64,000 bases of DNA. It comes from Haliclona indistincta (lineage: Eukaryota; Porifera; Demospongiae; Haplosclerida; Chalinidae). Shown piece by piece: positions 4,647 through 7,600 of this stretch. Positions within the stretch are counted from its first letter, which is position 1; the number at the start of each line of letters is the position of its first letter. The stretch spans positions 4,513,569 to 4,577,568 of the forward strand of contig OZ024787.1 of the NCBI GenBank assembly GCA_964017065.1, read 5' to 3'. The notes beneath the pieces are model-generated. The model did not search any database. It was not told where the DNA came from and saw only the letters and a program-made list of their open reading frames with translations. A program made the translations under genes and the position numbers.

Positions 4647-7600
4647 ATGGCTTCGAGACGAGCTTCAAGAAAAGTTTCTCCCTCTCAACGAAGCGATGAA
4701 GAAGAGGACAATGAAGAAGACCGCACGATCGTCAACGATTCCAAGAAGAAAGAGGCAAAGAGGAAAAGGAACTGTGGTGGTTGCTCTAGTTGCCTCAAAG
4801 AGGACTGCGGACAGTGCTCCTCATGCAAGGACATGATCAAGTTCGGCGGGAGCGGTCGCAAGAAGCAGCGCTGCGTCAGGAGGCGTTGCAGCCCACCGGT
4901 AAGAACTGATTGTGACCTTATCAGATACTGTGATGCAAATATTCTCATTCTCAGGCTGGAAATTTGATCACCAGCTTCTTCAACAACAAGCACACTGCCA
5001 TTGTTGCTGATCCAGTCCCTACAGATCATTCTGTCTCTTCAAGAGAAAATACTAGCTCACCTAAAGAAGAGAAGGTCACAGTAGAAAATGGCTGTGCCCT
5101 CAATCATCGTCTTGCTGAGAACTCGATAATGACAGAAACCACCAATATTTCGAGAACTGATCAACCGGTTTCACCAGCAGTCACTCAGTTGCAACCACTG
5201 TTAGAAAGGGCACCATCGTCTAAGTCACTCTCTCCTCCTCTTTCAAGTGGTGACGTCATGTCCCAGACTGTTCTTGGCTTGGAAGGCACAGGTAGTAGAG
5301 ACTTGGGTCCTCAGGCACTTGAACCTGCTGTAGAGAAGGAGAATAATGTCAGTGAAAAAGTCACGCCTAGGCGGAAAAGAAAACGTTCAAAAAGCAAATG
5401 CGACTCAAATGATGAAGATGTGAACATTTCTGTAACTTCACAAGATGCAAGTAACAGTAATTGTAATGGAGTAAGTCAACCAGCAACCGCTGACAAAGAA
5501 GAAAAGACTAGTGATCGCGATGAGACTCAGCTTGAATCTCCTCTTCCCGTCTCTGAACGACGAAGCAAAAGAATAGCAGCCATTGCTGCAGATAGCAAGC
5601 TCGCCCAGGTCAACAATGATGCTGACAGCATTAGCTCAAGCCCTTTACCACAAAGCAAGAGAACTAGGAAAAGAAGAAAGAAATCTTTTCTCGACAGTTC
5701 GGATGAAGTCGATCAAGAAGATGAGGTGACTGTTCTTTCTTCTGCTTCTCCGTCGCCTGTCGACAGAAGTGCCTGTATGATACTTGGCACTGACTTCTTT
5801 GCAAGTGCTGAGCCGGAATCCAGTCCTTCTTTGCAGGCTACAGCTAATGCATCGCTAATGGACAAGGTTGTGCCTTCCACTTCATCTCTCTCATCAAGTT
5901 GGGCAACGTTATTTAGGAAGCCGCCTCCAGACCCATCATTGCAGGATATTGGTGAGGAAGATGCCAGCACTTCTCAGAGAAAACGACAAAAAACTCCATC
6001 ACCGAGAAAATGTCTGAGCCCAAGAAAAAATGTGTTTTCTTCTCCTCGAGCTAGCCCAAGACTTTCTCCACGGGCGAGCCCTAAGTGCTCTCCTTTACGA
6101 GGTAGCCCCAAGCGTTCTTCTCCTTTACGGCGGCAGCTTGTGGGGCAAGCTAGCCCTCAGAAAAACCATTCTTCTCTTGTATTCAGCTCTTCTCGTAAGC
6201 AGTTGTCTTTTGGATCTGCTGAAATGCTTGACTACGCTCCTTTTCACAGTCTGGTACATGTTCAACAGATTGATGAACCACTAATACCGGTCTTGAATAC
6301 AAACCAGTTTGGTCCTATTTCTAAGAAACTCTCTTCTATCAATGTTTCAAATTCTACCATGCAGTTGGGAACTGTCACTATGGTAACCGAACCACCACAC
6401 CCACAAAGCACCACCCCAGTACAGGTGAGCAAATCAACTAAAAAGTAATAATAATAAAACAGCATGCATTGAAACCTGCTCTACAACTCATGCTACAGAT
6501 GTATGATATTATGTGTTGTTCGTAATGCCTAGTAATGTATGAGTATATGTACACATTTGACCTTTCCTTTCATGCAGGAACAGGTGGGAGACGGAAAGAA
6601 AGCGGAGCTGATAGAAGACAACAAGCTGACAGTTGACGATGTTTTGACACAGATCGAGCAACAGTACTCGGACTCTGCCAAAGTGCGGGAAATGTTTGCC
6701 CGCTATCAACGCTTGACCCATTCCATCACTGCCAGCACAGCAAATGAGAGACGCAGCAAGACAATACCCGAACAAGCTCGGCAGCAACCACATTCTCCAG
6801 ACATTGTAATCACATCCAGCAAACAGCCAAACCAGACCTGCACTACAAAGCCCAAGATCAAGAAACAAGAGATGGACGAGGACTCATTTGTGTGCAGTAT
6901 TCGAATAACAAAGAGAAAACGCCCTGGAAGGATCATGGTGGATCGCATGGCTTATATAGGATCAGCGCCACATAAAGAGGAGGATGATTCTTTTGGCTCA
7001 AAGAAAAGGAGGCGCTCACACAAAGAGGCAAACAAGGATGATGAACAGACGATCAATGATGCCTGCGGTGACTCGAAGAAAAGAAGGCGGCATTCACACA
7101 GACGTGCTAGACAGGTAAGCAAAGATGAGGAAGAGGAGTTAATCGAACAAGCATCTGATTTGAAAAGCCGAAGAAAGTGTCGGGACGAAGTAGAGGTTGT
7201 AGGAGTGTCATCAGTTGTAGCGAGGCCTTCTCTTGGCGGAGAGGTATGGTGTGATGTGTACCAGCCTCATCGAGCTGAGGATGTGATCGGGAACCAGTCC
7301 GCCGTGCATCAGCTCCAGTCCTGGTTGACACAATGGAAAGAGAAGTGCCAGACTGACACTAAAACCAATCAACAGAATGGGAACCAGTCTAAACCAGTAC
7401 GTGCTCTTCCCGAAACTGAAGTACCGGATGATGACCCAGATTTTAGAACTACAAAACTTCGACCAAGCTTACGGTTGAGTTCTCTCAACGATAGTTTCGA
7501 CTCTGCCGATCTTGATGAAGATAGTCGGGAGGATGCAGGACTGTGTCCCGCTCTACTGGTCTGTGGGCCTAGCGGATCTGGAAAGACAGCTGCCATTATG

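What the first reader, a model, noticed from the sequence alone, without database searches (positions are those of the whole stretch)
4647..6424. CXXC zinc finger fused to the N-terminus of the PCNA unloader ATAD5
Exon 1 encodes a complete CXXC finger with all eight cysteines and the KFGG and KQ residues that read unmethylated CpG in DNMT1, CFP1 and KDM2. It splices in phase 0 through a 56-bp intron to the exon that starts with the ATAD5 PIP-like motif. Exon 1 has no plausible ending of its own and exon 2 has no start of its own, so they belong together. Vertebrate ATAD5, as I know it, lacks this finger. The fusion could direct PCNA unloading by CpG methylation state, or couple it to maintenance methylation, where DNMT1 also carries both CXXC and PCNA-binding modules.
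Basis: partly seen in the sequence, partly recalled or inferred. Interest (0 to 1): 0.85.

Follow-up and report, generated by a model that had tools for sequence, protein, structure and literature searches.

The report
CpG-reading finger on a PCNA unloader
In this sponge-like genome the gene for ATAD5, the machine that takes the replication clamp PCNA off DNA, appears to start with an extra zinc finger of the kind that recognises unmethylated CpG, which could let clamp removal sense DNA methylation; the join has not been seen in RNA.

Summary
4647-4898 encodes a complete type-1 CXXC finger (Pfam 51.8 bits, cut-off 26.5; eight Cys, KFGG, KKQ). It can join in phase 0, through a 56-bp GT-AG intron, to exon 2 of a clear ATAD5 gene (CDS 4647-9952, 10 exons, 1421 aa). 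The downstream exons match human ATAD5 (7.6e-42) far better than RFC1 (2e-11). Exon 2 opens at a motif (LITSFF) that in Ephydatia and Trichoplax ATAD5 lies within nine residues of the first Met, and it has no Met for 58 codons. None of 67 ATAD5-like proteins found, Ephydatia included, has the finger.

The genome has DNMT1-like, SRA and PAF15 matches, parts of a pathway that ATAD5 helps to end in Xenopus extract. Most likely mechanism (inferred): the finger holds ATAD5 on parentally unmethylated CpG and favours PCNA/PAF15 removal there. There is no RNA evidence and no second species. Caution and side finding: the genome holds at least 97 CXXC matches, and 38 of 52 Mutator-like transposase matches have one within 6 kb, so CXXC exons are mobile here. 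Verdict: probable new ATAD5 architecture.

The parts
4647..4898 (+). Exon 1: start, charged linker and CXXC finger (84 aa)
   Evidence: Pfam zf-CXXC 51.8 bits; phase-0 donor CCG|GTAAGA
4773..4889 (+). Core CXXC finger, residues 43-81, type 1 (KFGG 4839-4850, KKQ 4860-4868)
   Evidence: typing after PMC3685328
4899..4954 (+). Intron 1, 56 bp, phase 0 (predicted)
   Evidence: GTAAGA ... TTCTCATTCTCAG
4955..6424 (+). Exon 2: ATAD5 N-terminal region; LITSFF PIP-like motif 4964-4981, SSWATLF 5894-5914, LVHVQQ 6251-6268
   Evidence: similar stretches SSWADIF and VVHVQQ read by eye in Ephydatia P0001; no Pfam match
6578..7627 (+). Exon 3: start of the AAA+ region, Walker A GPSGSGKT 7565-7588
7733..8059 (+). 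Exon 4: ATAD5 PIP EATQSHQV 7793-7816
   Evidence: motif as in human ATAD5 1173-1180 (PMC11563871, passage)
8447..9952 (+). Exons 5-10 (8447-8543, 8689-8747, 8793-8965, 9014-9589, 9641-9796, 9847-9952): rest of AAA+ and C-terminal RRFLHYL block, stop at 9950-9952
4200..4800 (.). CpG-rich region between the divergent RPP20 and ATAD5 genes, probable shared promoter; CpG o/e 1.1 against 0.49 in the ATAD5 body
   Evidence: 21 of 634 bins of the window score higher
4013..4558 (-). Divergent neighbour, RPP20 (open frame)
   Evidence: Pfam Rpp20 71.7 bits

Best explanation
A single gene encodes an ATAD5 (Elg1-type) PCNA unloader whose N-terminus has gained a type-1 CXXC finger as a new first coding exon. 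Step 1, one fused gene: supported by sequence, not by RNA (my estimate 0.87). Step 2, the finger binds CpG only when unmethylated: inferred from residues (0.8 given step 1). Step 3, function, inferred (about 0.45 given step 2): behind the fork, CpGs methylated in the parent are hemimethylated and should not be bound, while parentally unmethylated CpGs should be. The finger thus concentrates or holds ATAD5-RFC on CpG-island-like DNA, where PCNA and any PAF15 are removed early, before DNMT1 can act. This would help keep such DNA unmethylated and leave clamps longer where maintenance methylation is still needed.
For: Finger. Junction, phase, no Met in exon 2. Exon 2 opens at a motif close to the first Met of Ephydatia (MATLQKVRITTYF), Trichoplax (MEDNNILITTYF) and P0018 (MKSMINDYF) ATAD5, against AGNLITSFF here (matched by motif, see against). 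ATAD5 identity: human ATAD5 7.6e-42, RFC1 2e-11, CTF18 9.5e-4; one ATAD5 locus in the genome. Exon 1 is CpG-rich (o/e 0.98; gene body 0.49), as expected of a first exon, and starts 88 bp from the divergent RPP20 open frame. KFGG and K-K-Q fit the CpG-reading tripeptide of type-1 domains, which methylation blocks (PMC3685328 section 5). Window CpG o/e 0.58 with TpG 1.26 suggests germline methylation. DNMT1-like, SRA and PAF15 matches exist. ATAD5 removes PAF15 with PCNA, and the authors suggest that it may keep the methylation machinery off other sites (PMC9943068, section 13).
Against: No transcript, no second species. Ephydatia ATAD5, the closest relative found, lacks the finger, so the fusion may be recent or dispensable. 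In fish, scallop and copepod ATAD5 the N-terminal motif lies 24-57 residues in, and a MAFFT alignment of six proteins did not align LITSFF with the others' motif in the blocks shown, so the correspondence at the junction is by motif only. CXXC exons are common and partly transposon-borne here, so one beside a gene is less improbable than elsewhere. The AlphaFold model of exon 1 was poor (mean pLDDT 60.6, pTM 0.30, ten rows). In mouse the Dnmt1 CXXC domain was dispensable for rescue of methylation (PMC3032784, passages). DNMT1 and SRA identities rest on exon-wise matches; attempts to re-scan the PAF15 and SRA loci with Pfam failed.
Confidence: 0.5

Rival explanations
1. Fused gene, but the finger is only a general DNA tether or a leftover of exon shuffling, with no methylation-dependent control of unloading.
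For: Ephydatia and the rest of 67 ATAD5-like proteins found do without it; CXXC modules are abundant here; CXXC is dispensable in Dnmt1 rescue experiments (PMC3032784, passages).
Against: All eight Cys, KFGG and KKQ are kept although the finger is only 41-67% identical to the 21 own-genome copies aligned, which suggests selection for CpG binding.
Confidence: 0.27
2. Alternative first exons: one isoform carries the CXXC exon, another starts ATAD5 from a short exon not recognised here.
For: Ephydatia and Trichoplax ATAD5 have a Met only a few residues before the motif; an upstream in-frame ATG at 4527 shows that more than one start is possible.
Against: Only 88 bp separate the RPP20 open frame from 4647; of the three ATGs in 4501-4660, 4527 and 4647 are in the exon 1 frame and 4618 meets a stop after one codon. 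Starts inside or beyond RPP20 were not scanned.
Confidence: 0.13
3. Separate short CXXC gene: the intron is retained, giving a 106-aa CXXC protein ending at 4965, and ATAD5 lies downstream with its own unseen start.
For: An open frame runs from 4647 to a stop at 4965.
Against: The intron has good sites and phase 0; a scan of 4601-6600 for AATAAA/ATTAAA found one site only, at 6453 in intron 2, so no nearby 3' end is visible; exon 2 has no start for 58 codons.
Confidence: 0.06
4. Chance juxtaposition or decayed transposon copy of a CXXC exon beside ATAD5.
For: At least 97 CXXC matches in 144 Mb, 37 of 97 within 6 kb of a Mutator-like transposase match. Two broken transposon-type CXXC copies lie about 120-160 kb away on the same contig and are 72-75% identical to the finger over 32 residues (L055, L056).
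Against: No transposase match within 6 kb of this copy; no near-identical copy; little room between RPP20 and exon 2 for an element; frame and splice sites intact, while L055 and L056 are frame-broken.
Confidence: 0.04

Closest known systems
ATAD5 / Elg1 (PCNA-unloading RFC-like complex large subunit)
   Same: AAA+ core, EATQSHQV PIP, N-terminal IxxYF-type motif and C-terminal RRFLHYL block are present
   Different: An N-terminal CXXC finger, absent from human ATAD5 and from the 67 ATAD5-like proteins found
DNMT1
   Same: CXXC finger up to 70% identical to that of insect DNMT1; also a PCNA-linked protein of maintenance methylation (recalled)
   Different: No methyltransferase domain seen; this genome has a separate DNMT1-like gene whose CXXC is split by introns, whereas the ATAD5 finger lies in one exon
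Type-1 ZF-CxxC chromatin proteins (CFP1, KDM2A/B, FBXL19, KMT2A/B, MBD1)
   Same: Eight Cys, KFGG and KQ
   Different: As I recall, none of the 12 mouse ZF-CxxC proteins (number from a figure legend in PMC3685328) is a clamp loader or unloader
CXXC-bearing Mutator-like transposase genes of the same genome
   Same: CXXC in one short exon-like frame with a basic run before the first Cys; broken copies L055/L056 of the L045 type are the closest over 32 residues (72-75%)
   Different: There the CXXC lies downstream of a MULE/SWIM transposase; here it is N-terminal to ATAD5 and no transposase match lies within 6 kb

Membership tests
ATAD5 | Closest solved relative is ATAD5, not RFC1 or CTF18 | tested here: met
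   7.6e-42 for 8ui7_A; RFC1 2e-11; CTF18 9.5e-4
ATAD5 | Non-consensus PIP EATQSHQV after Walker A | tested here: met
   aa 945-952, Walker A aa 904-911; human motif from PMC11563871
ATAD5 | N-terminal IxxYF/FF PIP-like motif | tested here: met
   LITSFF aa 88-93; motif near the Met in P0001 and P0075, 24-57 residues in in others; not recovered by the multiple alignment
ATAD5 | UAF1 and BET binding | not tested
   recalled from the literature, not searched
ATAD5 | PCNA unloading activity | not testable with these tools
   needs biochemistry
Type-1 ZF-CxxC | Eight Zn-binding cysteines | tested here: met
Type-1 ZF-CxxC | KFGG and KQ/RQ | tested here: met
   KFGG aa 65-68, KKQ aa 72-74; definition in PMC3685328
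Type-1 ZF-CxxC | Binds unmethylated CpG | not testable with these tools
   needs a binding assay
Type-1 ZF-CxxC | Crescent fold in a structure model | tested here: inconclusive
   mean pLDDT 60.6, pTM 0.30; no fold search made
DNMT1 | C5-methyltransferase domain in the same gene | tested here: not met
   gene continues as ATAD5; PF00145 matches are on other contigs
CXXC-bearing MULE element | MULE transposase domain near the finger | tested here: not met
   none within 6 kb

The most novel reading that the evidence does not exclude
PCNA unloading in this lineage is directly gated by DNA methylation: the CXXC finger reads parentally unmethylated CpG behind the fork and triggers early removal of PCNA and PAF15 there, protecting CpG islands in cis, while hemimethylated DNA keeps its clamp until DNMT1 has finished. 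The finger may have been captured from the genome's own CXXC-bearing Mutator-like transposons.
Probability: 0.3. Interest if true: 0.87.

Novelty: new variant of a known kind. Interest (0 to 1): 0.62.

Why it matters
How the end of maintenance methylation is tied to clamp removal is open: the Discussion of the Xenopus study weighs several possibilities and, in the sections read, names no methylation sensor on ATAD5 (PMC9943068, section 13). A natural ATAD5 with a built-in reader of unmethylated CpG would be a ready-made test of that link, and a simple construct (the finger on a laboratory ATAD5) could test it.

Tried and rejected
Protein searches: region 835-1160 gave 66 proteins; region 32-131 gave 8 hits, all DNMT1 by name or domains, no fusion; region 896-985 gave only Trichoplax. 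These searches sample words and returned only one sponge by name, so their silence is weak evidence. Scans of viral contigs and genome contigs (84-aa and 350-aa queries) found no relative. A tree of 26 CXXC domains did not place the ATAD5 finger (15 of 23 inner branches open). Best pairwise scores there: L024 184, own DNMT1 182, MULE copy L045 and bee DNMT1 178 each. So its origin is undecided. The AlphaFold model was too poor for a fold search, which I left out. Literature: ATAD5+CXXC gave nine papers, of which I opened one. The listed rows of the other searches showed no such fusion in titles or abstract starts: 10 of 617, 3 of 3, 12 of 25, 15 of 15, 3 of 3, 9 of 9, 12 of 20. Most subscription papers and bioRxiv preprints are outside this library.

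Full report
WHAT IS THERE. The window lies in a 144-Mb genome of 46 contigs. The best ATAD5 match is from the freshwater sponge Ephydatia muelleri (39% identity, 179 bits; next best 121 bits), so I take the organism to be a sponge; no call names it. Exon 1 (4647-4898) encodes 84 residues with a zf-CXXC domain at residues 37-81 (51.8 bits, E 8.1e-14, cut-off 26.5). Exon 1 matches 22 PDB sequences at E up to 0.001: DNMT1 first (5.3e-12), then KDM2B, FBXL19, KDM2A, CFP1, KMT2B, MBD1 and KMT2A. The finger has all eight cysteines, KFGG and KKQ. KFGG and KQ/RQ mark type-1 ZF-CxxC domains, whose tripeptide reads CpG and clashes with methyl groups (PMC3685328, section 5 and passages). Mutating KFGG reduced DNA binding of the MLL1 and Dnmt1 fingers (PMC3032784, passages).

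THE GENE. Ten exons with GT-AG introns give 1421 residues, CDS 4647-9952; exon ends were set by eye and checked for frame. The AAA+ and C-terminal part matches human ATAD5 (7.6e-42) far better than RFC1 (2e-11) or CTF18 (9.5e-4). It carries EATQSHQV, the non-consensus PIP of human ATAD5 residues 1173-1180 (PMC11563871, passages). One ATAD5 locus was found in the genome. Pfam alone is not informative here: exon 2 has no match and exon 3 only a Rad17 match below cut-off.

WHY EXON 1 BELONGS TO IT. The intron is 56 bp, like four others of the gene (45-51 bp), phase 0, with donor GTAAGA and a pyrimidine-rich acceptor; within the range scanned one other in-frame join exists, with a weaker acceptor. 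Exon 2 has no Met for 58 codons. It opens with AGNLITSFF, which resembles the very N-termini of Ephydatia (MATLQKVRITTYF) and Trichoplax (MEDNNILITTYF) ATAD5. In those two, and in P0018, the protein begins about where exon 2 begins, so exon 1 looks like an added piece. In fish, scallop and copepod proteins the motif lies 24-57 residues in, and the multiple alignment did not align LITSFF with the others, so this rests on the motif. Exon 1 lies in CpG-rich sequence (o/e 0.98) while the ATAD5 body is depleted (0.49), as expected of a first exon next to a divergent promoter shared with RPP20. Against this: the frame also stays open into the intron and stops at 4965, giving a possible 106-residue product; an upstream in-frame ATG exists at 4527; and there is no RNA.

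IS IT KNOWN. None of 67 ATAD5-like proteins (66, one; 34 of 67 contain EATQSH) has the six-Cys CXXC half pattern, none of the 66 lists PF02008, and the full-length human chain is not hit by exon 1. A search with the finger plus the PIP-like motif returned 8 proteins, all DNMT1. The papers listed show no such fusion in titles or abstract starts, with the limits stated under Tried and rejected.

HOW IT COULD WORK. In Xenopus egg extract ATAD5 removes PAF15 with PCNA; co-depletion of USP7 and ATAD5 leaves DNMT1 on chromatin and raises global methylation, and the authors suggest that ATAD5 may keep PAF15-PCNA off sites outside DNA methylation sites (PMC9943068, abstract, sections 9 and 13). A type-1 CXXC finger on ATAD5 would supply an address: after replication, parentally methylated CpGs are hemimethylated, and unmethylated ones are the CpGs that the finger should bind. 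This genome has DNA-methylase matches placed with a CXXC exon as in DNMT1, an SRA match (UHRF1-type; one of two pieces over cut-off) and one PAF15 match (41.4 bits, cut-off 23.4), and the window is CpG-depleted with TpG excess. Every functional step is inference.

ORIGIN AND CAUTION. CXXC is not rare here: 97 matches, a lower bound. Of 52 MULE transposase matches, 38 have a CXXC match within 6 kb; of the 97 CXXC matches 37 lie within 6 kb of a MULE match, all on the same strand, 36 of them downstream by 1.3-3.4 kb. Several CXXC-bearing repeats are 95-99% identical over a kilobase or more. L020 and L036 show ALS2CR8-like, MULE and SWIM matches upstream of the CXXC frame; that the CXXC frame is spliced to the transposase is inferred. 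The ATAD5 finger has no MULE match within 6 kb. Its top-scoring paralogues are 55-62% identical, and a tree cannot place it. Over 32 residues the closest are two frame-broken copies, L055 and L056, 75% and 72% identical, about 120-160 kb away on the same contig; they read like the transposon-type copy L045. Over the whole finger own DNMT1 (67%) and insect DNMT1 (70%) are as close or closer. The own DNMT1 finger is split by introns while the ATAD5 one is not, which mildly favours an intronless source such as a transposon.

VERDICT. A probable new domain architecture of a known protein.

Noticed in passing
L019, L020, L021, L023, L028, L029, L031, L036, L045 (own genome): Mutator-like (MULE) transposase genes have a CXXC frame downstream: 38 of 52 MULE matches have a CXXC match within 6 kb. 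A reader of unmethylated CpG on a transposase could steer insertion to unmethylated DNA; the rows listed by searches showed no such report in titles or abstract starts.
   Followed up: partly
own genome, 97 places: At least 97 zf-CXXC matches in one 144-Mb genome, against 12 mouse ZF-CxxC proteins (figure legend); 60 of 97 have no MULE match within 6 kb and most of these were not examined.
   Followed up: partly
L024 and L027 (own genome): Two copies, about 96% identical over 2.9 kb, carry a CXXC frame without a MULE match within 6 kb; a weak integrase-core match (below cut-off) lies nearby in L027.
   Followed up: no
L049 and L012 (own genome; open frames of 515 and 428 aa): CXXC domains in long open frames that were not identified; they may be further host genes with the finger.
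   Followed up: no
L055 and L056 (same contig as the window, about 120-160 kb before it): Two frame-broken CXXC copies, 94% identical to each other, whose intact half is 72-75% identical to the ATAD5 finger over 32 residues.
   Followed up: partly
window 4013-4558 (-) and 10567-11007 (-): Neighbours: RPP20 divergent from ATAD5, and a ribosomal S4/S9-type protein gene convergent with it.
   Followed up: no
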